Below, piece by piece: positions 452 through 50,216 of a stretch of DNA of 64,000 bases (within the stretch, counting starts at the first letter, position 1; every line of letters begins with the position of its first letter). The position numbers and the translations under genes are program-made. The notes beneath the pieces were generated by a model, which saw nothing but the letters and a program-made list of their open reading frames with translations, had not been told where the DNA came from and searched no databases. Source of the DNA: Actinomycetota bacterium (GTDB taxonomy: Bacteria > Actinomycetota > Thermoleophilia > Solirubrobacterales > Solirubrobacteraceae); the NCBI GenBank assembly GCA_018268595.1, contig JAFDWH010000017.1:1-64000 (forward strand), written 5' to 3'.

Positions 452-2980
452 CTACCCGGCCCCGCCCGGCGCGGGTCGGACCCGCACCGCGAGCCAGCCG
501 GGCAGCGCGATCATCGCGACCGCCACGCCGGTCATGAGCAGCAGGATGCCCGCCGCCGTGACGCCGGCCGGGACGTAGACCTCCGGGAGGTCGGTCAGCG
601 TCTGCATCCCGCGCGTGAAGAGGATCTGCCCCAGCAGCCCGAAGGCGGCGCCGACGCCGCAGCCGGTCCCCAGCAGCAGGGCGTTCTCCAGCAGCAGCGC
701 GCGCCACAGCTCGTGCTCGGGATAGCCGTGCACCTTCAGGCGGGCGATCGCGGGACGGCGCTGCCAGATCACCCCGCCGATCGCTCCCACGATCGCCGCG
801 AGCGCGGCGATCAGCACCAGCGCCGACACCTGGTCGATGCGCGCGAGCGCGTCGCGCGCGACCGCGACGTGACGCGCGATCCGCTCCGCGCGCGTCTCGA
901 CGAGGGCGGGCATCCGCGGCGGCAGCGCCCGTCGCACCGCGGCCGCGACGCCAGCCGGCGACGCGCCCTGCGCGACCTCGATCAGCAGCGCGCTCGGCGC
1001 CGGGCGCGACCACGCGCGCGCGTAGTCGCGCGCGTTGAGCACGATCGCCCCCGCGGGCCAGTCGAGGTTCGTCGAGACGGCCGCGACGCGCAGCCTCTGC
1101 GGCACGGGCGTGGGAAGCGTCACCGGATCGCCCACCCGGACCCTGAGCGTGTCCGCGATCGCGGTCGACAGCACGACCCAGCCGCCCTCGCGCAGCCGCC
1201 GCGCCGCCATGGCGGCGTCGCCGTGCAGGATCTGGCTTGCGGCGACCATCGTCCGGGCGGAGCCGGGCGGCGCCTGCACCCACGCGCGGTAGATCCCGAC
1301 CTCCAGGAAGCTGCCGCGATAGACGCTGACGTGCGAGACGTCCGGCAGCCCGCGCAGCTTCGCGAGCGTGCCGGCGGGGACCGGGAACGGCACGGTCGCG
1401 AGCGCATTGGTCGCGCCGGGGAACGTCACCCACACGTCGCCGTTGGCGTCGGTCGCCGTCGCGGCGGCCAGCAGGCCGCGCCGCAGGTCGGCGTGCGCGC
1501 CCTCGAGCCCGACGGTCGCATAGACGGCGATCGCGGCCGTCGAGGCGAGCGCCACCGCGCGCGTGCGCGTCGCGCGCGACCGCAGCTCGAGCGACGCGAG
1601 CGTCGGGACCGGGGTCCGCAGCGTGCGCGTCAGCGCCTCGAACACCCCCGTGGCGACGCGCAGGCTCGCGGGCAGGAGCAGCAGCAGCGATGCCGTCAGC
1701 AGGGAGAACGAGAGCGTGGTGGCTTGCGGGGCGCGCGCGATCAGCCACGCGGCGATCGCGAGCGTCGCGCATGCCAGCGCGGCCATGCCGCCTCCGGGGC
1801 CGAATCCACTGTGCCTCCCGTGGGCGGTCGCGTCACCGCGGGCGAGCGCGCCGCGGAGCGGGAGCAGGACGGCGCAGCACGCGGCGAGGAGCCCGGCGGC
1901 GACAGCGGTGACGACGCTCTGCCACCGCACGCTCACGCGTTCCCCTATCGGAAACGCGTACGTCAGGATGCTCGGGACGATCTCGATCAGATGGCGGATC
2001 GCGAGATAGCCGCTCAGCAGGCCCAGCAGCGACCCGGCGACGCCGAGCACGAGCGCGTCGAACAGCAGCAGCTGAAGCGTGACCCACGGCTCGTGGCCGG
2101 CCATCCGCAGGTCGGCGATGAAGCGGCGGCGCTGCGGCACTGTGAGCAGCACGGCGGTGAACGCGAACAGGAAGCCGACGAACGCCGCGAAGACCGAGAA
2201 GACCGCCGTCGTGCGCGTGATCGGGACCGCTGCGCGCTCGAACGCGGCGGCGTCGCTGTCGGCGCGCTCGACGTTCGCGTCCGGAGCGAGCGCGCGGAGC
2301 GCGCGTCGCACCGCTGTCTCGCGGCCCGGCCGCACGCTCACCACGATGCGCGACATGCGGCCGCGCATGTCGCTGACGCGCTGCGCGAGCGGCGGCGGGG
2401 CGAGCACGAACGGGCTGTCGACGAGCTTCCCGTAATCGCTGCGCCGCAGCTCCGCGCCGAGCGGGATGTCGACGCTGTGGCCGGCTGCCTGGAGGCGCAC
2501 GACGGATCCGAGATCGAGGTGCAGCGCGTCGGCGAGCGGCGCGGTCATCGCGAGCGCGTGCGCACCGACGACGCGCGTGCCTCCGACCTGCCTGGTGAAG
2601 CGGCGCACCATGACGCCGGCGTTGCGGGCCAGGCGCATGTCGCCGCTGACGAGGAAGACGGATCGCTCCCCCGTGGGACCGGCCACCGTCGCGGGGACTA
2701 TCAGCATCGTCGAGACGGCCGCGACGCCGTCGATCCGCCGGACCGCCGGGACGAGCCGCTCGTCGAGCCCTTCGGGGCCGCGCGCGACGACCAGCAGGCG
2801 CGCCTTGCCCTGCGTCCCGACGTCCAGCTCCCGCTGCGCGCCGAGCAGGCTCGTGTTGGCGACGAGCGCCGCGAACATCAGGCCGACGCCGACGGCGATT
2901 CCCGCGACCGCCAGCAGCTCCTGCATCGCGCGTGCGCGCAGCCGCACGCGGTACAGGTGCAGGAGGCTCGACAGGCGCAT
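452..2980 (-). CDS. FtsX-family ABC transporter permease (cluster A)
   Basis: An 842-aa MacB/FtsX-type permease, about the size of duplicated 'FtsX-like' proteins with two permease modules. The N-terminal membrane helix (around residues 18-40, AVAGIAVGVGLMFAALVA) is followed by a large extracellular region. A block of three helices sits near 260-390, a second extracellular domain follows, and further helices lie at the C-terminus. The ATG at 2980 lies four bases beyond the stop of the upstream ATPase gene, so I prefer it to the longer reading frame. It is the last gene of PadR - ABC - ABC - permease. It is a clear paralogue of the permease at 45831-48389 (shared RxRLR..A.QELLA..GIAVGV N-terminus). 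The substrate is unknown; the family exports lipids, peptides or drugs or transduces signals. Confidence 0.9.
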   Translation of the reverse strand: MRLSSLLHLYRVRLRARAMQELLAVAGIAVGVGLMFAALVANTSLLGAQRELDVGTQGKARLLVVARGPEGLDERLVPAVRRIDGVAAVSTMLIVPATVAGPTGERSVFLVSGDMRLARNAGVMVRRFTRQVGGTRVVGAHALAMTAPLADALHLDLGSVVRLQAAGHSVDIPLGAELRRSDYGKLVDSPFVLAPPPLAQRVSDMRGRMSRIVVSVRPGRETAVRRALRALAPDANVERADSDAAAFERAAVPITRTTAVFSVFAAFVGFLFAFTAVLLTVPQRRRFIADLRMAGHEPWVTLQLLLFDALVLGVAGSLLGLLSGYLAIRHLIEIVPSILTYAFPIGERVSVRWQSVVTAVAAGLLAACCAVLLPLRGALARGDATAHGRHSGFGPGGGMAALACATLAIAAWLIARAPQATTLSFSLLTASLLLLLPASLRVATGVFEALTRTLRTPVPTLASLELRSRATRTRAVALASTAAIAVYATVGLEGAHADLRRGLLAAATATDANGDVWVTFPGATNALATVPFPVPAGTLAKLRGLPDVSHVSVYRGSFLEVGIYRAWVQAPPGSARTMVAASQILHGDAAMAARRLREGGWVVLSTAIADTLRVRVGDPVTLPTPVPQRLRVAAVSTNLDWPAGAIVLNARDYARAWSRPAPSALLIEVAQGASPAGVAAAVRRALPPRMPALVETRAERIARHVAVARDALARIDQVSALVLIAALAAIVGAIGGVIWQRRPAIARLKVHGYPEHELWRALLLENALLLGTGCGVGAAFGLLGQILFTRGMQTLTDLPEVYVPAGVTAAGILLLMTGVAVAMIALPGWLAVRVRPAPGGAG

Positions 2981-2984
2981 GTGC

Positions 2985-3677
2985 TCAGTCGGGCAGCGGC
3001 GTCGCGGCGGGGTCGAGCAGCCGGCCGTCCTGCAGGACATGCGTGCGATCCGCGAAGCCGGCCGCCTGCGGGTCGTGCGTCGCCAGCAGCGCCGCCACGC
3101 GGTCCTCGTGGCAGACCCTGGTCAGCAGCGTGAGCACCTCGCGGCTGCGGGCGGTGTCGAGGCTTCCGGTCAGCTCGTCGGCGAGCACGAGCCGCGGGCC
3201 CGTGGCGAGCGCACGCGCGATCAGCACGCGCTGGCGCTCGCCGTGCGACAGCTCCTCGGCGCGGTGCGTCAGCCGCTCGCCGATCCCGAGGCGCTCCATC
3301 AGCGAGGCGACGCGCCGGTGCGCCTCGCGCACGCCGATCCGCATGTCGAACAGCTTCAGCGCCGCGTTGTCGATCGCCGAGACGCCGGGGAGCAGGTCGA
3401 GCGACTGGCTCACGTAGCCCAGCTCCAGACGGCGGTAGCGCGCTGCCTCGCGCGCCGACAGCGCGGTCACGTCGCGCCCGGCGACGCGGACGCGCCCGCG
3501 GTCGGGCGCGAGCAGCGCCGCCACGATGTTGAGCAGCGTCGTCTTGCCGGTGCCGCTGGGGCCGTAGAGCGCGACCAGCTCGCCCGGCGCGATCGACAAC
3601 GACAGGCCGTCGAGCGCGCGGACGACGTCGGCGCCGCCCGTGCAGAAGTGCTTGACGAGCTGCTCGATCTCGAGCAC
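2985..3677 (-). CDS. ABC transporter ATP-binding protein, intact (cluster A)
   Basis: A 230-aa LolD/MacB-type ATPase that should power the FtsX permease encoded immediately downstream. It has a canonical Walker A (GPSGTGKTT, about residues 39-47), a Q-loop near YVSQS, an LSHGERQR signature, a Walker B with catalytic glutamate (LVLADE) followed by LTGSLD, and the switch histidine in ATHDPQA. It begins directly after the stop of the preceding ABC gene and ends four bases before the permease start, so the three are one transcription unit. All catalytic motifs are present, unlike its upstream partner. Confidence 0.93.
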   Translation of the reverse strand: MLEIEQLVKHFCTGGADVVRALDGLSLSIAPGELVALYGPSGTGKTTLLNIVAALLAPDRGRVRVAGRDVTALSAREAARYRRLELGYVSQSLDLLPGVSAIDNAALKLFDMRIGVREAHRRVASLMERLGIGERLTHRAEELSHGERQRVLIARALATGPRLVLADELTGSLDTARSREVLTLLTRVCHEDRVAALLATHDPQAAGFADRTHVLQDGRLLDPAATPLPD

Positions 3678-4409
3678 TCAGGCGGACCGCTGCGAGCCGG
3701 GGAACGGGATCACCGCTCCGCGCGCGTCGCGGTCGGCCGGCGCGAGCAGACGGCCGCGGCTGAGCGCGCGCACCTCGTGCGCCTGGAGCATCGCCGGCAT
3801 GTCCGGCACCGCCATCACGACGGCGAGGCCCGCGTCCTGCGCGGCGGAGCGCAGCAGGCCGACGACGCGCTCGCGATCGAGGATGCCGAGCCCGGCCGTC
3901 GGGTCGTCGACGAGCAGCAGCCGCGGCTCGCGGACGAGCGCGTGCGCGATCGCCACGAGCGCCCGCGCGGTGTCGGAGAGGCTTGCCCATGGCAGCTCGG
4001 CGGCCTCGCCGGCGCCGACGCGCGCGAGCGCGGCGACCGCGCGCCGCTGCGCCTCGACCGGCCCGTGGTGGCGGTAGAGCGGAAGCGCGACGTAGGTCCG
4101 CATCGGGAGGTCGCCGCTCTGCGGGCCGTCGCGCTCGACCCAGCCGATCTGCTCGCGGTGCAGGCGCGCGAGCTGGCGGCGCGAGCAGCGCGCGAGGTCC
4201 GTGCCCGCGTACGAGACCGTCCCGCCGTCCGGCGACTCGAAGCCCGCGGCGATGCGCAGCAGCGTCGTCTTGCCGGCGCCGCGCTGGCCGTAGACGCCGA
4301 CCATCTCGCCCGCGTGCACCTCGAGCGAGACGTCGTCGAGCACGCGCATCTCGTGCAGTCCGCGCCAGTAGGAGCGGCTCACCGCGCGGAGCTCGAGCAG
4401 CGGCGTCAT
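3678..4409 (-). CDS. ABC ATPase-like protein with degenerate catalytic motifs (cluster A)
   Basis: A 243-aa ABC domain protein. Walker A is intact (GQRGAGKTT). The signature region reads LSDTARALVAIAHAL instead of LSGGQ, and the Walker B catalytic glutamate is aspartate (LLLVDDPTAG), so ATP hydrolysis at this site is probably poor. I infer a regulatory or non-equivalent half of a heterodimeric ATPase, with the intact ATPase at 2985-3677 as partner. The start ATG at 4409 overlaps the PadR stop by four bases (ATGA). A longer reading frame extends to 5027, but the PadR gene occupies that region. It is related to the degenerate proteins at 44376 and 49497. Confidence 0.85.
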   Translation of the reverse strand: MTPLLELRAVSRSYWRGLHEMRVLDDVSLEVHAGEMVGVYGQRGAGKTTLLRIAAGFESPDGGTVSYAGTDLARCSRRQLARLHREQIGWVERDGPQSGDLPMRTYVALPLYRHHGPVEAQRRAVAALARVGAGEAAELPWASLSDTARALVAIAHALVREPRLLLVDDPTAGLGILDRERVVGLLRSAAQDAGLAVVMAVPDMPAMLQAHEVRALSRGRLLAPADRDARGAVIPFPGSQRSA

Positions 4410-4996
4410 CGCGGCACCGGCGGGGCGGGGCGCGACGCGCGCCGGATCCGCTCCTCCATCAGCTCGCAGATTGCGTCCAGCCAGTCGACGAGCGTCTGCA
4501 GCGAGCGGACGCGGAAGTCGTCGACCATCATCGTCGCGGCGTCGCGCCACGGCACCTCCGGCTCGGCGACGCTCGCGAGCGCCGGGCGGCTGAGCGTCGC
4601 CAGCTCGGCGAGGCACGCGCGCGCCTGCGCTTCCGCGCCGGCGAGCAACTCGGGCAGGTCGTCGGGCTCGGCGACGTTGAGCTTCGCCTGCAGCTCGTCG
4701 CGCAGCACGGCGCGCTCGCACGGCGCCGCGATCCACGCCCTGAAGCGCTCGCGCCCGAGCGGCGTGGCCCGGTACATGACGCGTGGCGCGCCGCGCCGCG
4801 TGGCGCCGATCCGGCGCGTTCCCGTCTCCTCGATCCAGCCCTCCGCTTCGAGCCGTTCGAGGATCTTGTAGACCGCGCTCTCCGCCAGGCCGAGGAAGCC
4901 GAGGCGCGCGTCGATGCGCTGCTGGAGGTCGTACCCGTACCCGGGGCGCTCGACCAGGAGCCCAAGCACAACGTGTCTCGTCGACAGGCCGCTCAT
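4406..4996 (-). CDS. PadR-family transcriptional regulator (cluster A)
   Basis: A 196-aa PadR regulator. The N-terminal winged helix (LSTRHVVLGLLVERPGYGY..L..RI, then SAVYKILERLEAEGWI) is followed by an alpha-helical dimerisation tail. PadR proteins usually repress a neighbouring efflux or transport operon and are released by the exported compound. The gene is the first of the operon and is translationally coupled to the ABC gene behind it. The imperfect inverted repeat at 5061-5085 is a plausible operator. Confidence 0.92.
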   Translation of the reverse strand: MSGLSTRHVVLGLLVERPGYGYDLQQRIDARLGFLGLAESAVYKILERLEAEGWIEETGTRRIGATRRGAPRVMYRATPLGRERFRAWIAAPCERAVLRDELQAKLNVAEPDDLPELLAGAEAQARACLAELATLSRPALASVAEPEVPWRDAATMMVDDFRVRSLQTLVDWLDAICELMEERIRRASRPAPPVPR

Positions 4997-5060
4997 CTCC
5001 CCCTCCCGTGGCCCTCCGAATGGTCACCGTACCGGATTTCGGTCCGCCGCGGGAGGGGCG

Positions 5061-39333: not shown

Positions 39334-41439
39334 TCAGCGCCAGATGACGGCGACCGCCGGCCCGTCGTGGTCGGCGAGCGCGGTGTGCGCGGTCGTGAGG
39401 ATGTCCTCCGCGCGGCGCGCGTCGGAGGCGTCGACGATGCGCGAGCCGCACACGAGCGCGACGCGCGGCAACACGTCGCCGACGCCGAGCTGCAGCGTCG
39501 ACTCGGCGACCGCGTCGCCGAGGCCCGCCAGCACGTCGTGCTTGGCGCCCGTCATCACGCGCCGCGCGCGCTCGGCGAGCGGCACCGTCCCGAGCCCGTC
39601 CACGACCGCGACCGGCCCCGAGCCGTTCTCGCTGTAGACGCGGTAGTAGTCGGTCGTCGCGACGAGCTGCAGCACGTTGGCCGCGACGCCGAGCGCGCGC
39701 GCCGCGGCGCGCTGCTGCGTCGGCTCGTCGACCGGCGCGCGGCCGGCGGCGCCGGACTCGAGCGCGACCGCGCCGGTCGCGACCGCGCGCACCTGTCCCG
39801 CCTGCGCGTCGTAGCGCGTCTCGACGCGCACCGTCTCGGGCGCCGCGCCGGCCGCGACGCACTCGCGCTCGGCCGCCTGCGCGACCTGCGCCGTCACCGA
39901 GCCGTCGCCGCCGGCGGCGCTGCGCACGACCTCCGCGCGCACGAGCGAGAGCGCCGCGCCGACCGACGACAGCACCTCCGGATGCGCCGGCGCCTGCAGC
40001 GGGCGGCCGAGCGCGCGCGCGACCTCGCCGGCGAGCGCGGGACCGGAGCCGCCGAGCGCGACGACCGGCACGTCCCGACCGAAGCCGTGCGCCTTCGCCG
40101 CCTCCTCGACCGCCCCGGCGATCTTCGCGACGGCCGCGTCGAGCAGTGCGCGCGCGGCGCCCTCGGCGCTCGTGCGCAGGCGCGCGGCCAGCGGCGCGAA
40201 GGCGGCGAGCGCGGCCTCGCGCGAGGCGACGGCGTGCGCGCCCTCCGGCACGAGCCCGAGCGCGTTCGCCGCGCAGGTCGCGGTGAGCGCGTGCAGCTCG
40301 CCGGAGCGCGTGCGGATCGCCGCGTAGGACTCCGGGTCGCCGGCGCGCGGCGCGACCAGCTCCAGCGTCGCGCCCTCCAGCGCGTCCGCCTCGGCGAAGC
40401 AGGCGTAGGGGAGGCCCGCGACGTGCGCGCTGCGCGGGCCGACCTCGGCGATCCCGCGCCGCTTCAGGCGCGCCATCGAGCCGCCGGCCGCGCCGACGAC
40501 CCACGAGTCGACCGAGCGGATCGCGGTCGGGCGGCCCATCACCTTCAGCGTGCGCAGCACGGTGCGCCCGCCGTCCACGACCGACACGTTCGAGGAGGTC
40601 CCGCCGCACTCCAGCACGATCCCGTTCGTCAGCTCCAGCTCGTGCAGCGCCGCCGCGACACCGGCCGCCGGGCCGGCGCCGATCGACAGCGACGGCGCGC
40701 GGCCGAACGCCTCCAGGCTCATCGCGCCGCCGTCGCCGCGCAGCACGAGCAGCGGCACGTCGATCGCGGCGGCCTCCAGCACGTCGCGCACGATCCGCGC
40801 GGTGCGCTCCATCAGCGGCAGGATCGAGGCGTTGATCGCGGCGCTCACCGTGCGCAGCTCGAGCCCGTAGGCGCCCGACAGCTCGTGGCCGGCGCACGTC
40901 GGCAGCCCGCGCTCGCGCGCGCGCTCGGCGACGAGCCGCTCGGCCTCGGGCGCGTCGACCGCGAACGCGCCGGAGGCGGCGATCGCGGTGCAGCCGGCGG
41001 CGACCAGCTCGTCGAGCGCACGGTCCACGTCGGCGTCGCTCAGCCCGCCGGTCGCGTCGAGGAAGGCGTGGCGCGTGCGCAGCGCGCGGCCGGGCGCGAG
41101 CGCGACGTCGCCGACGGCGGTGCGCTTGCGCGCCGGGCGCAGGTCGGGCGCGCGGCCGATCCCGACGACGCCGACCGTCGCGACGTCGCCCTCCAGCAGC
41201 GCGTTCATCGCCTGCGTGGTCGAGAAGGCGACCAGCTCGACCGCGCGCGCGTCGTCGCCCAGCTCCGCGAACAACTGCGCGAGCGCCTCGGCGACGCCCG
41301 CCGTCACGCCGTCGGCGTGGTGGTGGGTCGTGGGGACGACGGCGCGGGCGCGCAGCGCGAACGGGTGGGGAACGACCGCGACGGCCTTCGTGAAGGTCCC
41401 GCCGACGTCCACGCCGACGCGCAGCGCCCCGGCGCTCAT
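39334..41439 (-). CDS. Hydantoinase/oxoprolinase-family protein (HyuA-like)
   Basis: A 701-aa protein with the N-methylhydantoinase A/oxoprolinase ATPase fold. The phosphate-binding loop is VGVDVGGTFTKAVAVV, then FSTTQAMNALLEGDVATVGVVG. LRGDGGAMSLE and GIVLECGGTSSNVSVV are family landmarks. Family members open cyclic amides in an ATP-dependent way with a HyuB partner, which is absent here. Its ATG overlaps the FTR1 stop by four bases, an unusual coupling. The C-terminal 180 residues do not match typical HyuA. The function here is unknown. Confidence 0.82.
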   Translation of the reverse strand: MSAGALRVGVDVGGTFTKAVAVVPHPFALRARAVVPTTHHHADGVTAGVAEALAQLFAELGDDARAVELVAFSTTQAMNALLEGDVATVGVVGIGRAPDLRPARKRTAVGDVALAPGRALRTRHAFLDATGGLSDADVDRALDELVAAGCTAIAASGAFAVDAPEAERLVAERARERGLPTCAGHELSGAYGLELRTVSAAINASILPLMERTARIVRDVLEAAAIDVPLLVLRGDGGAMSLEAFGRAPSLSIGAGPAAGVAAALHELELTNGIVLECGGTSSNVSVVDGGRTVLRTLKVMGRPTAIRSVDSWVVGAAGGSMARLKRRGIAEVGPRSAHVAGLPYACFAEADALEGATLELVAPRAGDPESYAAIRTRSGELHALTATCAANALGLVPEGAHAVASREAALAAFAPLAARLRTSAEGAARALLDAAVAKIAGAVEEAAKAHGFGRDVPVVALGGSGPALAGEVARALGRPLQAPAHPEVLSSVGAALSLVRAEVVRSAAGGDGSVTAQVAQAAERECVAAGAAPETVRVETRYDAQAGQVRAVATGAVALESGAAGRAPVDEPTQQRAAARALGVAANVLQLVATTDYYRVYSENGSGPVAVVDGLGTVPLAERARRVMTGAKHDVLAGLGDAVAESTLQLGVGDVLPRVALVCGSRIVDASDARRAEDILTTAHTALADHDGPAVAVIWR

Positions 41440-42680
41440 CGGACCGCCGGCTCCAACCGCTCCCGGCGCCGGCGGCGCGCCGGCAGCCACGCGAACGTCC
41501 ACAGCGCGCCGGCGGCGAAGACCGCCAGCAGGACCGCCTGCACGAGCAGGCTCTCGCGCGTCGGGTGGACGCCCGTCAGCTCCCCGACGAACACCGGCGG
41601 TCGCGCCCAGCCGGCGTGCACGGGCGTCGCGCTCACCATGTCGGCGCCCTGCAGCGAGCGGACGGCGTTGCCGGCGAACGCGACGCTCAGCAGCAGCAGG
41701 ATCGAGGCGCCCGTCAGCAGCATCGGCTTGAGCGGCAGCGTGCGCCCGAGCCGCAGGATCGCGAACGCGACCGCGCCCAGCGCGGCCACGCCGGCGAGCG
41801 CGCCGAGCGCGACCCACAGCTCCAGCCCCTGGGCGAACAGCAGCAGCGCTTGGTAGAAGAGGACCGTCTCGAAGCCCTCGCGGTAGACGGCGGTGAAGCC
41901 GAGCGCCGCGAACGCGCCCGCGCTGCCGGCGGCGATCGCGGACGCCACACGCGCGCGCATGAACTCCATACGGCGCCGCTGGTCGATCCGCGCGACGAGC
42001 CAGAAGCTCACCAGCACCAGCACGAGCACCGCGAGCAGCGCGGTCGCCGCCTCCAGCAGCTCGCGGTTGACGGGCGCGAGGTCGATCACGAGCGTCGTCA
42101 GCAGCCACGTGGCGGCGGTCGCGGCGAGCGCGCCCAGCACGCCGAGCGACAGCGGCTTGCGGTAGCCGCTTGCTCTGCCGGCGGCGAGCGAGCCGAGCAG
42201 GATCGCGATCAGCAGGACCGCCTCGACGCCCTCGCGGAACAGGATCGAGAAGGAGAAGCCGAACGCGATCGCGGGCGCGGCGACGCCCTTCTGGGCGATC
42301 GCGCGGTCGGTGTCGAGGATGCCCGCGCGCACGTCGCGCACGTCGGCGCGGATCGTGCCGAGCGGCGCCCGGCGCTGGAGGTCGTTGCGCAGGTCGGCGA
42401 ACTTGAACTCGGTGTCGAGCACGAGGTTCGGGTCGCGCAGCCGCAGCGGGATCTCGACGTACTCGTAGTGGTCGAGGTAGGCGCTGCGCGCGAGCGTGTA
42501 CGCGCGCGCGTAGTCGCCCGCCTTCGCCGCCGCGAGCGAGCGGTCGACCAGCGTCTTGGCGATCGCGTTCTCCTTCCGCCCGCGCTCGAGCGCGTCCTGT
42601 CTCGCGGCGGCGGCGCCGGGCAGCAGCGCCAGCGCCGCGACGACGAGCGGGAGGACGGCGAGAAGGCGGAGGCGCAGCAT
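41436..42680 (-). CDS. FTR1/EfeU-family iron permease with N-terminal exported domain
   Basis: A 414-aa protein. A signal peptide (LLAVLPLVVAALALLPGAAA) precedes a 100-residue helical extracytoplasmic domain containing DHYEYVEIPLR. A seven-helix FTR1 permease follows, with the two iron-ligating motifs FREGVEAVLLIAI and YREGFETVLFYQA. It imports ferric iron, possibly after ferrous oxidation. The small lipoprotein gene upstream resembles its exported domain. Repeated TTAGGG elements precede both genes. Confidence 0.93.
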   Translation of the reverse strand: MLRLRLLAVLPLVVAALALLPGAAAARQDALERGRKENAIAKTLVDRSLAAAKAGDYARAYTLARSAYLDHYEYVEIPLRLRDPNLVLDTEFKFADLRNDLQRRAPLGTIRADVRDVRAGILDTDRAIAQKGVAAPAIAFGFSFSILFREGVEAVLLIAILLGSLAAGRASGYRKPLSLGVLGALAATAATWLLTTLVIDLAPVNRELLEAATALLAVLVLVLVSFWLVARIDQRRRMEFMRARVASAIAAGSAGAFAALGFTAVYREGFETVLFYQALLLFAQGLELWVALGALAGVAALGAVAFAILRLGRTLPLKPMLLTGASILLLLSVAFAGNAVRSLQGADMVSATPVHAGWARPPVFVGELTGVHPTRESLLVQAVLLAVFAAGALWTFAWLPARRRRRERLEPAVR

Positions 42681-42692
42681 CGTGCGGAAAGG

Positions 42693-42712
42693 TTAGGGCA
42701 CCCGAGTTAGGG
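42693..42712. promoter_or_regulatory. TTAGGG-N8-TTAGGG direct repeat before the FTR1 gene
   Basis: TTAGGG occurs at 42693-42698 and 42707-42712, a 14-base period, just upstream of the FTR1 start at 42680. The same arrangement precedes the lipoprotein gene. It resembles half-sites of DtxR/IdeR-type iron boxes (TTAGG...CCTAA). The metal-responsive role is inferred. Confidence 0.5.
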
Positions 42713-42717
42713 CGGCC

Positions 42718-43131
42718 TTACTGGTGCGCGAGCGCGCGCTCGGCGGCGTCGAGCTTGGCGTCGATCGCACGCACGAGCGCGCGCACCTTCGCGGCGCCGG
42801 CGTCGGCTCTGATGCGCGCACGCAACTGCTCGCGGATCGTGTCCTCGAGCTGCTCGTTGAGCTCGTGGTCGGCCTGCCCGAGCGGGCCCTCGACGAGCTC
42901 GAAGTGCTGCAGGTACGTGTCGCCCACCTGCCGGTCGGCCGCGCCGGCGTCGCCCGCCTCGTATGTCGCGAGCGCCTGCGCGAGGCCGCTGCGGACCTTG
43001 CCGATCTCGGCGATCGCCTGCTGCGGCGTCGCGCTGTGCTCGGCCTCCTCGGCCTTGTCGTCGCTGCTGCCGCAGCCGAGCGCGAGCCCGGCGAGCGCGA
43101 GCGCGGTCAGGGTGGTGATGCGTGCCTTCAC
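42718..43131 (-). CDS. Lipoprotein linked to the iron permease
   Basis: A 137-aa lipoprotein. The signal peptide ends in the lipobox LALGC near residue 20, followed by a charged linker (GSSDDKAEEAEHS) and a helical domain (YEAGDAGAADRQVGDTYLQHFELVEGPL). That domain resembles the exported N-terminal domain of the adjacent FTR1 protein. I infer a surface iron-binding or chaperone partner. The GTG start at 43131 is supported by AAGGAG eight bases upstream. Confidence 0.8.
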   Translation of the reverse strand: MKARITTLTALALAGLALGCGSSDDKAEEAEHSATPQQAIAEIGKVRSGLAQALATYEAGDAGAADRQVGDTYLQHFELVEGPLGQADHELNEQLEDTIREQLRARIRADAGAAKVRALVRAIDAKLDAAERALAHQ

Positions 43132-43852: not shown

Positions 43853-44368
43853 GTGAGGTCGTCGGTCAACGCTGCTGTCCTGAGCCTGGTGATCGAGCGG
43901 CCGAGCTACGGCGGTGAGATCGGACGCCGCTTCGAGCAGCGCTACGACGGCTTGTTCGACTCGCGCCCGCAGCACATGTACAAGGCGCTCGACGACCTCG
44001 AGGAGGACGGCCTGATCGAGCCGTGGTCCGTCGAGGACGAGCATGGCATCGAACGCGAGGGCTATCGCGCGACAGCGAGGGGTGCGCGCGCGTATCAAGC
44101 CTGGCTGCGTGCGCGCATCCGCCCGTCGAAGCGCATCCGCGAGGAGGTCTTGATCCGGTTCGCCTCGACGCGGCCGGAGGACGTCGAGACTGTGGAGTAC
44201 CTGCTCGACCGCTACCAGCATGCGGTGATGGCGCTCGCGGCGGTACCGCGCGTCCGGACGGACAATCTGGTCGAGCGCGCGCTCGACAAGGAGCGCCAGA
44301 CGATGGTCGATGGGACGTTGCGTTGGATCGCGTGGGCGCGGGACGAGCTGCGTTCGCGTGAGCCGTGA
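43853..44368 (+). CDS. PadR-family transcriptional regulator (cluster B)
   Basis: A 171-aa PadR protein with winged helix VNAAVLSLVIERPSYGGEIGRRFEQRYDG, then HMYKALDDLEEDGLI, and a helical C-terminus. The GTG start at 43853 has GGAGG six bases upstream. It heads the second PadR-ABC-ABC-FtsX operon of the window and should repress it. Confidence 0.92.
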   Translation: MRSSVNAAVLSLVIERPSYGGEIGRRFEQRYDGLFDSRPQHMYKALDDLEEDGLIEPWSVEDEHGIEREGYRATARGARAYQAWLRARIRPSKRIREEVLIRFASTRPEDVETVEYLLDRYQHAVMALAAVPRVRTDNLVERALDKERQTMVDGTLRWIAWARDELRSREP

Positions 44369-44375
44369 CAGGACG

Positions 44376-45110
44376 ATGGCGCTGCTCGTCCTCGACGAGG
44401 TGTCGAAGCTCTCGTCCGGCGGTCGAGGCGGACCGCGACAGCGGCCCGCGCTGCGTGACGTGTCGTTCGAGCTGGACGCGTCGGAGTTCGTCGCCGTCTG
44501 GGGTCTGCCGCGCTCCGGTCGCTCCACGCTGCTGCATGTGGCCGGTGGCGTCATGCCGCCGAGTGCGGGCGTCGTCCGGTTCGACGGGCGGGATCTCGCG
44601 GCAACTCCCGCGCTCGGGCGTCCGGCTGGCATCGCACTCGTGAACACGTGCTTCCGCCGCGTGATCGGAGACTCCGTGCTGGAGCACGTCGCGGCGCCTT
44701 TCATGGGGCGCGGCATGCCCGTGCTCCCAGCCCAGTCCAAGGCGCTCCAACTGCTGAGACGGGTCGATGCGGTCGCTTGCGCCGAGCTGGACGCCAACGA
44801 CCTCGATCACGCCGAGGCGATCCGCGTGGGGATCGCGCGGGCGCTCGCGACGAGCCCGCGGCTGCTGCTGCTCGACGAGCCGACGATCGGCGTGCCGCCG
44901 GCGCGGGACCGGGACGACGTCCTGGCGCTGCTTCGCTCGATCTCGCGGCGCGACAGAGTCGCGATCCTGATGACGGTGGGAGAGGCGGCCGACCTCGCGG
45001 GCGTCGACCGCGCGCTGACGATCGACGACGGCACGCTGCGCGGACCGCTCAGGCCCGAGCCGGCGCGCGTGATCGAGCTTCGACCGGAGCAGAGCGGATC
45101 GACGGCGTGA
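44376..45110 (+). CDS. ABC ATPase-like protein with degenerate Walker A and signature (cluster B)
   Basis: A 244-aa ABC domain. Walker A reads GLPRSGRST (residues 43-51), with Arg replacing the nucleotide-binding Lys. The LSGGQ signature is replaced by DANDLDHAEAIRVGIARAL, while Walker B LLLLDEPTIG is kept. It is probably unable to hydrolyse ATP normally and would act as a non-catalytic partner of the intact ATPase next to it. I chose the ATG at 44376; GTG 44358 would overlap PadR. The orphan protein at 49497-50216 is a close relative (GLRRSGRST). Confidence 0.85.
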   Translation: MALLVLDEVSKLSSGGRGGPRQRPALRDVSFELDASEFVAVWGLPRSGRSTLLHVAGGVMPPSAGVVRFDGRDLAATPALGRPAGIALVNTCFRRVIGDSVLEHVAAPFMGRGMPVLPAQSKALQLLRRVDAVACAELDANDLDHAEAIRVGIARALATSPRLLLLDEPTIGVPPARDRDDVLALLRSISRRDRVAILMTVGEAADLAGVDRALTIDDGTLRGPLRPEPARVIELRPEQSGSTA

Positions 45111-45826
45111 CGCTTCAGCTCGCGAACGTCGTCAAGCACTACACATCCGGCAGCGGGGAGGTGGTCCGTGCCGTGGATGACGTGACGCTCGACCTCGACG
45201 CGGGGGAGATGGTCGCGCTCTACGGACCGAGCGGCTCCGGGAAGACGACGCTCCTGATGCTCGCCGCCGCTTTGCTGCGACCCGACCGGGGCACGGTTCG
45301 GTTCGCCGGGCGCAGCCTGGGCGACTTGAGCGACCGCGAGGCGTCGGACTATCGCCTTCGGGACGTGGGCGTCGTGTTCCAGCACTTCGAGCTGATGCGC
45401 GGGGTGCCGGCCGTGGAGAACGCGGCGATCAAGCTGCTGGCCGAGCCGATGGGGATCGGCGAGGCGCGTCGTCGCGCCGCGCCGTGGCTGGAGCGCGTCG
45501 GGCTCGGGCACCGCCTGGAGGCAGCGCCGGAGCAGCTCTCCGGCGGCGAGCGCCAGCGCGTCGCGATCGCGCGTGCACTCGCGAACGAGCCGCGCTTGAT
45601 CCTCGCCGACGAGCCGACCGGGAGCCTCGACACGCAGCGCGGGCGGGAAGTGCTGCTGCTCCTGCGCGAGATCGCCCGCGAGCGAAGCACCCCTGTGCTT
45701 GTCGTGACGCATGATCCGCAGGCGGCGCAGATCGCCGACCGCGTGCACACGCTCCGCGACGGGAAGATCGAGGAATGCGACGACGCGGCGGTGTCGTTCG
45801 CCGATGAGACGACCTCGGGGGCGTAG
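45107..45826 (+). CDS. ABC transporter ATP-binding protein, intact (cluster B)
   Basis: A 239-aa LolD/MacB-type ATPase. Walker A is GPSGSGKTT, the Q-loop VFQHFELM, the signature LSGGERQRVAIARAL, Walker B LILADEPTGSLD and the switch VTHDPQAA. All catalytic residues are present. The GTG start overlaps the stop of the degenerate partner by four bases, and the FtsX permease follows four bases after its stop. Confidence 0.93.
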   Translation: MTLQLANVVKHYTSGSGEVVRAVDDVTLDLDAGEMVALYGPSGSGKTTLLMLAAALLRPDRGTVRFAGRSLGDLSDREASDYRLRDVGVVFQHFELMRGVPAVENAAIKLLAEPMGIGEARRRAAPWLERVGLGHRLEAAPEQLSGGERQRVAIARALANEPRLILADEPTGSLDTQRGREVLLLLREIARERSTPVLVVTHDPQAAQIADRVHTLRDGKIEECDDAAVSFADETTSGA

Positions 45827-45830
45827 CGTC

Positions 45831-48389
45831 ATGGTCAGGCCGAGCGCGCTGATCTACTTCTACCGCAAGCGCCTGCGCGTCCATGCGGTGCAGGAGCTGC
45901 TCGCCGGTCTGGGGATCGCCGTCGGCGTCGCCCTCGTGTTCTCCGTTCAGGTCGCCAACAGCAGCATCACCGGATCGGCTCGACAGATCCTGCACGCGCT
46001 CGCGGGCGACGCGACGCTGCAGCTCGCCGCCCGCGACGCGGGCGGGTTCGATCGGCGCACGCTCGCGCGCGTCCAGGCGCTGCCGGGCGTGGCGCACGCG
46101 TCTGCGCTGCTGGACCAGCGCGCGACGATCTCGTTCGGCACGCGGCAGGTGCAGGTCGACCTGGCCGGGGTCGACGCGAATCTGCCGTCGCTCGACGGCA
46201 TCGCGACGCGGCACATCGGGCTCGGCGGCCTGCTCCTCCAGCACGGACTCGTGCTGCCGATGTCGGTCAGCAGCGCGCTCGGGCTCGCAACCGACGAGAG
46301 CGTCCGCGAGGGGCTGCCGGAGGTCACGGTCGCCACGCGCGGCAGGGTCCGCCGCACAGCCGTCGCCGCCGTCCTCGATCACGGCACGATCGGGCCGCTG
46401 TCAGGCGCGCTGCTCGGCGTCGTCTCGCTCGACTACGCGCAGAGCCTCACCGGGCTGCGCGGGCGGGTGACGCGGATCCTCGTCGCCGCGAGACCGGGGC
46501 AGGAGGCGCTGGCCCGACGGGAGCTGACGCGCTTGGCGGCAGGCCGCCTGACGGTCGCTTCTGTCGACGACGAACTGCGCTCGCTCCAACAGGCCACGGC
46601 GCCGATCGCTCAGTCGACCAGCCTGTTCGCGGGGATCAGCGCGTTCGTCGGATTGCTGTTCACGTTCACGGCGATGCTGCTGACGGTGCCCGAGCGGCGC
46701 CGCTTCGTCGCCGATCTCCGGATCATGGGCTACCGGCGCGGAAGCGTGGCGCAGATCCTCGCCTTCCAGGCGATCGTCCTCGGTGTCGTGGCGTCGGGAG
46801 TAGGGCTCGTCGCCGGCTGGCTCCTCTCGCAGACCGGCGCACACGACCCGCCCGGCTATCTCGCGTTCGCGTACCCGCTCGGCACGCAGCGGGTCATCGG
46901 GCTGGGCGCCGTGCTGGTCGCGTTCTGCTCGGGGATCCTCGCGACCTGCCTCGCGGCCTCCCAGCCGCTGCTCGATCTGCGGCGCACGCGGGCGATGAAC
47001 GAGGTGCTCGTGCAGTCCGGCGAGCCCGGTCATGCGGTCGGCGCCCAGGCCCGCCGGGCGCTCGCCGCCTGCGGACTCCTGCTGTTCGTGGGCGCGGGCC
47101 TCGTGCTGTTGCTGGAGCCCGCTGCGACGATCGCGGGGATCATCGCGACCGCTGTCGCGATGGTGCTGGTCGTGCCGGTGTGCTTCGTGCTGGTCCTCAA
47201 GGCGTCCGACGGTCCCGCCGACCGATGGCGCCTGAACTCGCTCGCGCTGGCGATCCGGTCGCTGCGCGCGACGTCGCTCCGCTCGCTCGGACTCGTCGCG
47301 ACCGGGGCCGTCGCGGTCTTCGGGGCGGTCGGGCTCGAGGGCGCACATCGCAACCTGCTGCACGGCCTGTACTCGGACTACCGGGGCTACGTGGGGACCG
47401 CCGACATCTGGATCGCGCAACCGGGCGACGACCTGGCGCTCCAGCCGTTCGACGGCGCCGGCGTCGAACGGCGCGTCGGGGCTGTGAGCGGCGTTCGGGC
47501 GGTCCGCGCCTACCGCGGTGGCCTGCTCGACCTCGGCCGCCGGCGCGTCTGGGTGATCGCGCGCCCCCACGGCGACCGCGAGATCGTGCCCAGCAGCCAG
47601 CTCGTCCATGGCACGCATGCCGCGACCGAGCAGGTGCGGGCTGGTGGGTGGGTCACGGTCTCCCAGCAGATCGCAGACGACCGCGGCATCCGGCCGGGCG
47701 GGCGGATCGAGCTGCCGACGCCAACCGGCACGGTCGACTATCGCGTGGCCGCGACGACCACCAACCTCGGCTGGGGACCCGGTGCGATCGTCATGAGCGA
47801 CGGCGACTACCGTCGTGCGTGGTCGACCTCGGCGACGACCGCTCTGGAGGTCGACGTCGACAAGGGAGCGGACCCCGCCACGGTCGCAGGTCGCATTCGG
47901 CGATCGCTGGGACCGGTCCGCAAGGCGCTGCTCGTGCAGACCGCCGGGCAGCGCTCGGCGCACGCCGACGGCATTGCTCGCGCCGGCCTGGCGCAGCTCG
48001 GCCAGATCGCGACGCTGCTGCTGCTCGCCGCCGCGTTGGCGCTCGCCGCCGCGATGGGCGCGGGGGTCTACCAGCATCGCGGTGCGCTCGCGCAACTGCG
48101 CGTGATGGGATGGCGCTCGCAGAAGCTGTGGCGAGCCCTGCTGTGGGAGTCGGCGCTGGTCCTCGGCACAAGCTGTGTCGTCGGCGCCGCCGCCGGCGTC
48201 TACGGGCACTTTCTCGGAGATCGCTGGCTGCGCTACTCGACCGGGTACCCGGCCCCGTTCGCGTTCGCGGTCGAGCAGACGATCGCGCTGTGTCTGCTCG
48301 TGTCGGTCGCCGCTGTCGTCGTCGCCGCCGTCCCCGGGTTCTTCGTCGCAAGGACGGCACCGCACGTCGGACTCGATCCGGGCGCATGA
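45831..48389 (+). CDS. FtsX-family ABC transporter permease (cluster B)
   Basis: An 852-aa duplicated FtsX-type permease, paralogous to 452-2980. The N-terminal helix (LLAGLGIAVGVALVFSVQVAN) precedes an extracellular domain. A middle block of helices includes LFAGISAFVGLLFTFTAMLLTVPERRRFVADLRIMGYRRG, and a second extracellular domain follows. The C-terminal helices include the coupling sequence HRGALAQLRVMGWRSQKLWRALLWESALVLG. The exported substrate is unknown. The terpene-synthase-like gene next downstream hints at a lipid or terpenoid. Confidence 0.9.
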   Translation: MVRPSALIYFYRKRLRVHAVQELLAGLGIAVGVALVFSVQVANSSITGSARQILHALAGDATLQLAARDAGGFDRRTLARVQALPGVAHASALLDQRATISFGTRQVQVDLAGVDANLPSLDGIATRHIGLGGLLLQHGLVLPMSVSSALGLATDESVREGLPEVTVATRGRVRRTAVAAVLDHGTIGPLSGALLGVVSLDYAQSLTGLRGRVTRILVAARPGQEALARRELTRLAAGRLTVASVDDELRSLQQATAPIAQSTSLFAGISAFVGLLFTFTAMLLTVPERRRFVADLRIMGYRRGSVAQILAFQAIVLGVVASGVGLVAGWLLSQTGAHDPPGYLAFAYPLGTQRVIGLGAVLVAFCSGILATCLAASQPLLDLRRTRAMNEVLVQSGEPGHAVGAQARRALAACGLLLFVGAGLVLLLEPAATIAGIIATAVAMVLVVPVCFVLVLKASDGPADRWRLNSLALAIRSLRATSLRSLGLVATGAVAVFGAVGLEGAHRNLLHGLYSDYRGYVGTADIWIAQPGDDLALQPFDGAGVERRVGAVSGVRAVRAYRGGLLDLGRRRVWVIARPHGDREIVPSSQLVHGTHAATEQVRAGGWVTVSQQIADDRGIRPGGRIELPTPTGTVDYRVAATTTNLGWGPGAIVMSDGDYRRAWSTSATTALEVDVDKGADPATVAGRIRRSLGPVRKALLVQTAGQRSAHADGIARAGLAQLGQIATLLLLAAALALAAAMGAGVYQHRGALAQLRVMGWRSQKLWRALLWESALVLGTSCVVGAAAGVYGHFLGDRWLRYSTGYPAPFAFAVEQTIALCLLVSVAAVVVAAVPGFFVARTAPHVGLDPGA

Positions 48390-48448
48390 CCGCTTGGTGC
48401 TGAGCGGGGCTCCGCGTGTCCGGGCGGCGCCGGGCGGGTCGCGGGACC

Positions 48449-49525
48449 ATGAGCGCTGTGGGGGACCTGTGGGCCGTCGCGCGGCTGGTCGTGAGCTACT
48501 ACCTGACGGTCGCGCGCCATGTGCGGCGTGAGCTTGCCTGCTGGCGTGGGCACGCGCGTGCGATCCCCGACCCGTGCCTGCGAGGGCTGGCGCTGGCCAA
48601 GCTGGCCGACGAGCACCTCAACGCGCAGGCGGCCGCCGTGTTCGCGACGCTCGTCCCGCTCCGACAACGGCGGCGCGCCGCTCGCATGATGGTCGCCTTC
48701 CAGGTCATGTACGACTACCTCGACGCCGTCAGCGAGCAGCCTTCCGGCGATCCCGTCGTGAACGGGCTGCGGCTGCACGAAGCGCTGCTCACGGCGATCC
48801 TCCCGGAGCGTCCGGCTGTCGACTACTACGCCTTTGCCACACGTGGGCGGGATGACGGCGGGTACCTCGACCGTGCCGTCGCATCGTTCCGCTCGCGCAT
48901 GCGCGCGATGCCGGCTGAGGCCACGGTGCGGCCAGCTCTCGCCCGCTGCGCGGCGCGGGTGGGCGAGGGGCAGACGCGGACGCACGCTGTCGATGTTGCA
49001 GGCGTCCTCCAACTGCGCGCCTGGGGCGCGACCCTGGCCCGCGCGGGCCCGTACGAGTGGTGGGAGGCGACGGCCGGCGCCGCCTCGTCGCTCGCGCTCC
49101 ACGCCCTGTTCGCGGCGGCAGGCGATGCGAGTACGACAGGAGAGGACGCACTCGCCGTTGAGCGGGCCTACTTTCCGGCTGTTTGCGCCATCAGCACCTT
49201 GCTCGACGCCGTCGCCGACCAGAGATCCGATCGTCTCGCGGGGAGCCGCAACTACATCGACTACTACGCCACGAACGCGGAGGCCGTACGCCGGCTCGCG
49301 CTGATCGCGCGAGACGCCGACCGCCGCACGCGGGACTTGAGACGTGGCACGCGTCACGCCACGATCGTCTCCGGGATCTCCGCCTTCTACCTCTCGGCTG
49401 TCTCTGCACTAGAGCCGGGTGACCGGGAGGCGGTCCGACAGATGGCCGGAACGCTCCGACCCTGCACGATTCGACCACTGTTGGCGATCTTGCGCATCAA
49501 GCGGTGTCTCGACGCAGGGGGATGA
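48449..49525 (+). CDS. DUF2600 protein, tetraprenyl-beta-curcumene synthase (YtpB)-like
   Basis: A 358-aa DUF2600 protein. Family landmarks are ARHVRRELACWRGHARAIPDP, VAFQVMYDYLDAVSEQPS (acidic metal-binding region), RGRDDGGYL, AASSLALHALFAA and SGISAFYLSAVSA. Bacillus YtpB uses geranylgeranylfarnesyl-type diphosphates to form sesquarterpenes. The actinobacterial substrates are unknown. The ATG at 48449 is chosen over GTG 48416. It follows the FtsX gene by 59 bases in the same direction, so linked expression is plausible. Confidence 0.88.
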   Translation: MSAVGDLWAVARLVVSYYLTVARHVRRELACWRGHARAIPDPCLRGLALAKLADEHLNAQAAAVFATLVPLRQRRRAARMMVAFQVMYDYLDAVSEQPSGDPVVNGLRLHEALLTAILPERPAVDYYAFATRGRDDGGYLDRAVASFRSRMRAMPAEATVRPALARCAARVGEGQTRTHAVDVAGVLQLRAWGATLARAGPYEWWEATAGAASSLALHALFAAAGDASTTGEDALAVERAYFPAVCAISTLLDAVADQRSDRLAGSRNYIDYYATNAEAVRRLALIARDADRRTRDLRRGTRHATIVSGISAFYLSAVSALEPGDREAVRQMAGTLRPCTIRPLLAILRIKRCLDAGG

Positions 49526-50216
49526 CCGGCGCCCGGGGCGGCGTGGGCGAGCCGTGCAGTCGACCTCCGTCGAGCGTGAGCGCACGGTCGACGCCCGCGA
49601 GGTCCGCTGCGTCGCCCGTCGTCATCAGGACGGCGATGCCGTCGTCGCGCACGAGCGACTCGATCAGCGCGAGCAGCGAATCGGCCGCACGCGCCGGTGG
49701 GATGCCGGCCAGCGGCTCGTCAAGCAGGAGCAGCGCCGGCTCCGTGACGAGCGCTCGTGCGATCGCCACGCGCGCCGCGTCCGCATGGTTGAGGGCGTCG
49801 ACTGCATCTTCCGCGCGGTCCGCTGCGCCGGTCCGCCGCAGTGCCGCGAGCGCGCGGCGCTCGGCGTCCGCGCGGGAGCGCTCGCTGAGGACAGGAGCGG
49901 CGACGTGGGCGAGCGCAGACGTTGCGATCGAGGCGCGAAACTGGACGAACCCGTAGCCGATCCCGCCGGTCGCTCCGAGCATCTGTCGTCGCGCCAAGTC
50001 AACGCCGTCGAACAGCACGACGCCGGAAGATGGCGGCAGCAGACCTCCTGCCGCTTGGAGGAGGGTCGAGCGTCCCGAGCGGCGCAGGCCCCAGACCGCG
50101 ACCCACTCAGCAGTGTCGATCGTGAGCGAGGCATCGCACAGGACGATGCGGTCCCGTTCACGCCGTCGCCCACGGGTGCGCTTCAACGTCACGTCGACCA
50201 GGGAGAGGAGCGGCAC
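49497..50216 (-). CDS. Orphan ABC ATPase-like protein with degenerate motifs
   Basis: A 239-aa relative of the protein at 44376-45110. Walker A is GLRRSGRST (Arg in place of Lys) and the signature is VDALNHADAARVAIARAL. Walker B LLLLDEPLAG is kept, and TTGDAADLAGVDRALTLDGG replaces the switch region. No intact ATPase, permease or PadR gene is adjacent on this strand. It may work with cluster B proteins or be a remnant of a third cluster. Its 3' end overlaps the convergent DUF2600 gene by 29 bases. Confidence 0.82.
   Translation of the reverse strand: MPLLSLVDVTLKRTRGRRRERDRIVLCDASLTIDTAEWVAVWGLRRSGRSTLLQAAGGLLPPSSGVVLFDGVDLARRQMLGATGGIGYGFVQFRASIATSALAHVAAPVLSERSRADAERRALAALRRTGAADRAEDAVDALNHADAARVAIARALVTEPALLLLDEPLAGIPPARAADSLLALIESLVRDDGIAVLMTTGDAADLAGVDRALTLDGGRLHGSPTPPRAPVIPLRRDTA

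What the first reader, a model, noticed from the sequence alone, without database searches (positions are those of the whole stretch)
43853..49525. DUF2600 terpene-synthase-like gene following an FtsX exporter cluster
The DUF2600 (YtpB-like) gene follows the cluster B permease by 59 bases on the same strand. Known YtpB makes long-chain terpenoids from polyprenyl diphosphates. The linkage suggests synthesis and export of a membrane terpenoid under PadR control.
Basis: inference. Interest (0 to 1): 0.55.

Follow-up and report, generated by a model that had tools for sequence, protein, structure and literature searches.

The report
Terpene-maker and lipid-pump gene cassette
In soil bacteria of the Conexibacter group, almost every copy of a long-chain terpene-making enzyme gene sits beside genes for its own membrane lipid pump, and one genome carries ten such sets, which suggests an undescribed way of making terpenes and moving them to the cell surface.

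Summary
In detail: a DUF2600 gene follows a PadR–ABC–ABC–FtsX cluster by 59 nt on the same strand. The window's genome holds ten DUF2600 genes, all ten beside such a cassette. Over ten genomes of the family, 54 of 58 DUF2600 genes lie within 1.5 kb of a permease of this family (about 0.7 expected by chance). Synthase and permease trees track each other, even among paralogues of one genome. The DUF2600 protein keeps both Asp-rich motifs and the class IB terpene-synthase fold. The permease folds most like E. coli YbbP, a type VII transporter thought to extract hydrophobic molecules; one of its two ATPases is degenerate. All extra cis-prenyl-diphosphate synthases found in these genomes lie near DUF2600 cassettes, recruited at least twice. 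Some cassettes add a P450 or two predicted secreted proteins. Best reading: a repeated module that makes long-chain, perhaps cis-prenyl-derived, terpenoids and extracts them from the membrane. Product, substrate, export and PadR control are inferred, not shown. I found no description of such a module in the papers searched.

The parts
43853..44368 (+). PadR-family transcriptional regulator, first gene of the cassette
   Evidence: Pfam PF03551 48.6 bits
44376..45110 (+). ABCa: degenerate ABC ATPase (Walker A Lys to Arg, signature LDHAE instead of LSGGE)
   Evidence: Pfam PF00005; motif counts over 49 cassettes
45107..45826 (+). ABCb: canonical LolD/MacB-type ABC ATPase
   Evidence: Pfam PF00005 118 bits; best NCBIfam matches LolD and DevA, below their cut-offs
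45831..48389 (+). two-repeat FtsX permease, 852 aa, two extracytoplasmic domains
   Evidence: PF02687 with two stretches; model pLDDT 90.9; best fold match E. coli YbbP
48449..49525 (+). DUF2600 class IB-type terpene synthase, 358 aa (alternative GTG start at 48416)
   Evidence: PF10776 225.5 bits; PDB 5yo8 E 2.1e-32; model pLDDT 95.9, TM 0.89/0.92 to 6loo
49497..50216 (-). orphan second ABCa-like ATPase, convergent, overlapping the DUF2600 3' end; in L041, L044 and L054 the corresponding gene is preceded by its own PadR
   Evidence: 55% identity to ABCa
455..5023 (-). cluster A: PadR-ABC-ABC-FtsX of the same family, no DUF2600 in the usual place, at the contig end
   Evidence: sister to the DUF2600-linked permease of L043 in the tree

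Best explanation
A mobile-partner-free, chromosomal 'make and extract' module. The cytosolic DUF2600 enzyme ionises a long-chain prenyl diphosphate and turns it into a hydrophobic terpenoid that stays in the membrane; in some cassettes a dedicated cis-prenyl-diphosphate synthase supplies the substrate and a P450 oxidises the product. The paired type VII ABC transporter (two-repeat FtsX permease, one working and one degenerate ATPase) uses ATP-driven movement of its outer domains to lift the terpenoid out of the membrane, and in some cassettes small secreted proteins would receive it. PadR would repress the operon until a ligand is bound. Shown here: conserved gene linkage, co-diversification, catalytic motifs, folds, degenerate ATPase, linkage of extra cis-prenyltransferases. 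Inferred: enzyme activity, substrate, product, direction of transport, role of secreted proteins, PadR control.
For: 10 of 10 DUF2600 genes in the own genome are next to the cassette. Over ten genomes 54 of 58 DUF2600 loci are within 1.5 kb of the permease, 50 of these 54 on the same strand; 54 of 68 permeases have a DUF2600. Permease-first scan of named genomes: 40 of 47 loci have DUF2600; that profile was built from 17 permeases, all of DUF2600-linked cassettes, so it leans towards linked ones. Distance-matrix correlation synthase-permease 0.71 over 56 cassettes, 0 of 999 shuffles as high; 0.73 within genomes, 0 of 2000 within-genome shuffles as high. Asp-rich motif residues invariant in 56 of 56 (D and E of motif 1; second and third D of motif 2) and D or E at the first D of motif 2 (53 D, 3 E). 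Class IB fold match. Permease nearest YbbP, whose authors propose extraction of hydrophobic compounds (PMC12646458). Cis-prenyltransferases: 16 in ten genomes, 7 within 5.5 kb of a DUF2600, the 9 others one per genome; at least two recruitments. P450 directly downstream of DUF2600, same strand, in L091, L092, L096, L097 (two genomes).
Against: No biochemical or expression data. Ten of the 14 permeases without a DUF2600 within 1.5 kb cannot be explained by contig ends from the calls made, so the transporter can exist without the enzyme. Seven of ten genomes hold no cassette-linked cis-prenyltransferase, the own genome among them. No true squalene-hopene-type cyclase in the own genome, so the Bacillus C35 pathway is not complete there. 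P450s are in two related genomes only. DUF2600 is divergent or convergent to the permease in some loci (L043, L035, L045-L047, L100), so one transcript cannot be general. The secreted proteins have no solid family or fold assignment and also occur away from cassettes (7 of 24).
Confidence: 0.6

Rival explanations
1. Envelope-stress and antimicrobial-peptide resistance module, like BceAB: the FtsX transporter frees or shields prenyl-phosphate targets, the extra cis-prenyltransferase raises undecaprenyl diphosphate, and DUF2600 removes competing prenyl diphosphates.
For: FtsX/type VII permeases include BceAB, which is in the fold-match list. In B. subtilis loss of ytpB sensitises to bacitracin through substrate accumulation (passages in PMC7038271 and PMC8144471). 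Housekeeping-like UppS copies sit in some cassettes.
Against: The permease has two outer domains, whereas BceAB lacks the first (PMC12646458 discussion). Kobras et al. found no effect of C35-diphosphate build-up on BceAB activity. P450s and predicted secreted proteins fit biosynthesis better. Ten divergent synthases per genome (28-47% identity) look like product diversification. I did not test for neighbouring two-component systems.
Confidence: 0.2
2. Membrane terpenoid made by DUF2600 stays in the membrane; the transporter is a clearance pump that removes terpenoid or a harmful by-product (self-protection).
For: Type VII transporters such as YbbAP are proposed to extract unwanted lipids; permeases without DUF2600 exist.
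Against: The near one-to-one pairing and co-diversification would be unexpected for a general clearance pump.
Confidence: 0.12
3. The linkage is an inherited accident: one ancestral neighbour pair duplicated many times without functional coupling.
For: Many cassette lineages are shared by the genera (tree).
Against: Gene order is shuffled in five ways (after, convergent, divergent, DUF2600 in front of ABCb, tandem DUF2600) yet stays together; cis-prenyltransferases joined at least twice.
Confidence: 0.04

Closest known systems
YtpB / tetraprenyl-beta-curcumene synthase and BalTS (class IB terpene synthases, PDB 5yo8, 6loo)
   Same: Same Pfam family, fold (TM 0.89/0.92) and two Asp-rich motifs
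   Different: 28-47% identity among paralogues of one genome, ten copies, paired with a transporter; motif 1 ends in E where the published consensus has D (DYLDNLxD); no SqhC partner in the own genome
E. coli YbbAP-TesA type VII ABC transporter
   Same: Closest solved fold of the permease (9ge6, TM 0.62/0.65), two outer domains, LolD/YbbA-type ATPase
   Different: Two unlike ATPases, one degenerate; a synthase instead of a hydrolase as neighbour; the overall fold match is moderate (rmsd 7.7)
LolCDE / LolF and MacB
   Same: FtsX permeases found by profile search (E 4e-13 for LolF)
   Different: Both halves in one polypeptide, no MacA or LolA partner seen in the cassette
BceAB resistance transporters
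   Same: FtsX fold, link to prenyl-phosphate biology
   Different: Two outer domains here; BceB lacks the first
Terpene gene clusters of other actinobacteria with P450s (albaflavenone, pentalenolactone)
   Same: P450 next to a terpene synthase; the P450 of L092 matches these models, far below their cut-offs
   Different: Other synthase class; here a type VII transporter is the constant partner

Membership tests
DUF2600 / class IB terpene synthase | Pfam PF10776 above cut-off | tested here: met
   225.5 bits against 25
DUF2600 / class IB terpene synthase | Two Asp-rich motifs of BalTS/YtpB | tested here: met
   DYLDAVSE and LLDAVADQRSD align with DYLDNLCD and LLDYFIDQEED; motif columns over 56 loci; the last position of motif 1 is E, not D
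DUF2600 / class IB terpene synthase | Class I alpha-helical terpene synthase fold | tested here: met
   Model pLDDT 95.9; best matches 6loo and 5yo8, E 2e-18
DUF2600 / class IB terpene synthase | Conversion of a C25-C35 prenyl diphosphate | not testable with these tools
   needs enzyme assay
Type VII (FtsX/MacB) ABC transporter | FtsX permease domain with large outer domains and cognate ATPase | tested here: met
   PF02687 (two stretches), MacB_PCD 28.4 bits; model; 9 hydrophobic segments over threshold
Type VII (FtsX/MacB) ABC transporter | Two competent ATPase sites of a homodimer (as in YbbA, LolD, MacB) | tested here: not met
   ABCb keeps all five motif residues in 55 of 56; ABCa in 0 of 49
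Type VII (FtsX/MacB) ABC transporter | Extracytoplasmic partner protein | tested here: inconclusive
   Predicted secreted proteins in some cassettes, none seen in the window cassette
BceAB | Single outer domain in the permease | tested here: not met
   Two outer domains in the model, residues about 59-244 and 522-704; BceAB lacks the first
BceAB | Adjacent two-component system (recalled) | not tested
   no family search of all neighbours was run
PadR-regulated operon | PadR protein at the head | tested here: met
PadR-regulated operon | PadR binding and repression of this promoter | not testable with these tools
   needs binding or expression assay

The most novel reading that the evidence does not exclude
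An undescribed class of bacterial terpenoid system, amplified to about ten divergent copies in one genome, in which each class IB synthase is matched to its own asymmetric type VII ABC extractor; in some branches a recruited cis-prenyltransferase means that the substrates are cis-polyprenyl diphosphates, and secreted barrel-like proteins carry or reshape the product outside the cell.
Probability: 0.35. Interest if true: 0.82.

Novelty: new variant of a known kind. Interest (0 to 1): 0.62.

Why it matters
Roles proposed for type VII ABC transporters so far are cell division, lipoprotein release, drug efflux and lipid extraction with a hydrolase. A large set of one-to-one synthase-transporter pairs would make a biosynthetic role testable, in a cultured type strain (Conexibacter arvalis DSM 23288). 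The linked cis-prenyltransferases give a concrete substrate prediction that differs from YtpB, and ten divergent synthases per genome point to unexplored terpenoid chemistry in common soil bacteria.

Tried and rejected
Fusion of permease and synthase: open frames of 1257-1277 codons in three genomes looked like fusions, but permease and DUF2600 lie in different reading frames; rejected.

Bacillus-type C35 pathway: no convincing squalene-hopene cyclase in the own genome (29 bits over part of the model). Trans-prenyl synthases: 20 in ten genomes, none within 5 kb of a cassette (nearest 5.7 kb to a permease, 8.4 kb to a DUF2600; tat-like genes lie between); no linkage claimed.

DUF2600 outside the family: of 300 genomes of the class 22 have it; in a phylum sample 1 of 396, the own genome. 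DUF2600 loci of other families (L087, L088, L102, L115, L116) show no cassette; L117 is cut.

Fold of the smaller secreted protein: it looks dirigent/allene-oxide-cyclase-like by eye, with one Pfam Dirigent hit in 1 of 16 members (E 0.0064) and a weak profile match to pyocyanin demethylase (E 0.1); two single-sequence searches gave nothing. Not claimed.

Promoter and terminator scan: uninformative in this GC-rich DNA.

Rows dropped: split DUF2600 hits closer than 300 nt on one strand were merged (60 hits to 58 loci). In one search, 56 of 62 loci entered (permease and ABCb both needed), ABCa in 49. My gene finder is a simple GC-frame heuristic, so neighbour lists may miss genes; it missed the cis-prenyltransferase of L062, later found by profile.

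Papers: PMC7038271, PMC8144471, PMC7839719 passages (the last also section 17), PMC12646458 abstract and discussion; PMC5939612 not held. Kingston et al. 2014 and Sato et al. 2011 were seen only as cited there. Absence from print rests on the searches in an open-licence library only.

Full report
Observation. The window region 43853-49525 holds five same-strand genes: PadR, two ABC ATPases, an FtsX permease and a DUF2600 protein. The intergenic distance of 59 nt is right if ATG 48449 is the start. The genes upstream are packed tightly: 7 nt gap, 4 nt overlap, 4 nt gap. A convergent second ABCa-like gene (49497-50216) overlaps the end of DUF2600.

Where it is. The window is contig 8, bases 1-64000, of a 3.57 Mb genome. 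Genome names other than that are not known to me from the calls; the 6,359,369-base contig of G040 fits C. woesei from memory.

Linkage. DUF2600 occurs ten times in this genome; B. subtilis was the only one of 14 control genomes to ring. All ten are next to the cassette. In the class sample 22 of 300 genomes have DUF2600, in a phylum sample 1 of 396. For ten genomes of the family I searched both proteins genome-wide: 58 DUF2600 loci and 68 permeases; 54 DUF2600 loci lie within 1.5 kb of a permease, 50 of these on the same strand, median gap well under 200 nt. The four others: one divergent at 2.3 kb from its permease (L043), two at contig ends (G301 C151, C51), and a partial gene (G289 C80). 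From the other side, 14 of 68 permeases have no DUF2600 within 1.5 kb; in the own genome these are three of 13, including cluster A of the window. In the permease tree the eight sampled permeases without DUF2600 (one of them a distant member) are scattered and need at least five changes on well-supported branches, which suits repeated loss, though gain cannot be told from loss. In named genomes a permease-first scan gave DUF2600 at 40 of 47 loci; three of the seven misses are cut inside the permease by the contig end (L151, L159, L164), four are real (L144, L146-L148). That scan's profile came from DUF2600-linked cassettes, which favours linked members.

Gene order varies while linkage stays: PadR-ABCa-ABCb-FtsX-DUF2600 is commonest; DUF2600 is convergent in L035, L045, L046, L047 and L100, divergent in L043, ahead of ABCb in L060, L063, L106, L111 and L119 (no ABCa seen there), and doubled in L130.

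Co-diversification. Patristic distances of synthase and permease correlate with r 0.71 over 56 cassettes (highest of 999 shuffles 0.14); synthase with ABCb only 0.33; permease with ABCb 0.57. Within genomes only (136 pairs), r is 0.73, none of 2000 within-genome shuffles as high (highest 0.57), and 0.63 after allowing for ABCb. The synthase thus follows the permease more closely than the canonical ATPase follows the permease.

The enzyme. The window protein matches PDB 5yo8 at E 2.1e-32 with both Asp-rich motifs aligned (motif definition from PMC7839719 section 17). Over 56 cassette proteins, D92 and E96 of motif 1 and D257 and D261 of motif 2 are invariant; D253 is D in 53 and E in 3. The model (pLDDT 95.9) matches class IB synthase 6loo with TM 0.89/0.92. 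No transmembrane segment is predicted by a hydropathy scan. Paralogues within a genome share 28-47% identity in the own genome, so different products are likely.

The transporter. The permease has two FtsX repeats; its model (pLDDT 90.9) has two outer domains (about 59-244 and 522-704) and matches YbbP best (9ge6, E 2.8e-19, TM 0.62/0.65), then LolE and BceB; by sequence profile LolF, MacB and LolC/E. YbbAP-TesA is proposed to extract hydrophobic molecules for a periplasmic enzyme (PMC12646458 abstract and discussion). ABCb keeps Walker A Lys, signature Ser and Gly, catalytic Glu and switch His in 55 of 56; ABCa in 0 of 49 (Walker A Arg in 21, switch His in 1). The transporter is thus probably an asymmetric heterodimer with one working site.

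Extra parts. Cis-prenyl-diphosphate synthases (PF01255): 16 in ten genomes. Seven lie within 5.5 kb of a DUF2600 (86, 146, 147, 177, 183, 2367 and 5486 nt); the nine others are one per genome in nine genomes. In G301 all three copies are linked, so its housekeeping copy is either one of these or missing from the assembly. The tree needs two recruitments at least; the DGNxRWA motif is kept in six of seven linked copies and is DGSARWA in the seventh. Trans-prenyl synthases show no such linkage. P450 genes follow DUF2600 directly in four loci of two genomes (L091, L092, L096, L097; Pfam for L092); a P450 also lies about 6 kb from the cassette of L033 in the own genome (L167). Two families without a Pfam match and with hydrophobic, signal-like N-termini in most members recur (about 265 and 160 aa). 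The 160-aa family has 24 copies in the ten genomes; 16 lie within 5.5 kb of a DUF2600 or permease and one more lies upstream of a contig-cut permease (L164, same coordinates), so 17 of 24; they also accompany cassettes without DUF2600 (L144, L146, L159, L164).

Mechanism. The parts fit a module that makes a hydrophobic terpenoid in the cytosol and moves it out of the membrane. Linkage, pairing, motifs and folds are shown; the chemistry, direction of transport, regulation and the role of the secreted proteins are inferred. The linked cis-prenyltransferases suggest that at least some of these synthases use cis-containing prenyl diphosphates, unlike YtpB. The main rival is a BceAB-like resistance module, because loss of YtpB raises bacitracin sensitivity through substrate build-up (passages); the later report that C35-diphosphate does not inhibit BceAB, the two-domain permease, the P450s and the number of divergent synthases speak against it without excluding it.

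Novelty. Searches for DUF2600, tetraprenyl-beta-curcumene synthase, class IB synthases, Conexibacter or Solirubrobacter with terpenes, and terpene synthase with FtsX and PadR gave no description of this linkage (listings only, open-licence library). Both protein kinds are known; the paired, amplified module appears new. I therefore call it a new variant of a known kind.

Noticed in passing
window 49497-50216 (-): Orphan degenerate ABCa-like ATPase convergent to and overlapping DUF2600; elsewhere (L041, L044, L054) such a gene forms a PadR-ABCa pair without a permease. What a PadR plus a degenerate ATPase alone would do is unexplained.
   Followed up: partly
window 455-5023 (-): Cluster A, a second PadR-ABC-ABC-FtsX cassette at the contig end; the 454 nt beyond its permease hold no DUF2600 start in the usual place.
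   Followed up: partly
L167:8536-9867 (own genome, contig C4): Cytochrome P450 near two neighbouring permease cassettes, one with and one without DUF2600.
   Followed up: partly
L060, L062, L063, L064, L110, L111 and others: Pair of predicted secreted proteins (about 265 and 160 aa) without a Pfam match, in or beside cassettes, also beside cassettes lacking DUF2600.
   Followed up: partly
L089:11030-11572 and similar genes in 16 loci: IclR-type helix-turn-helix proteins or fragments recur near DUF2600 loci of one genus code; may be a local gene family rather than part of the module.
   Followed up: no
window 41436-43131 (-): Iron-permease-like membrane protein followed by a small lipoprotein (by eye, no family search), next to the cassette on the other strand.
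   Followed up: no
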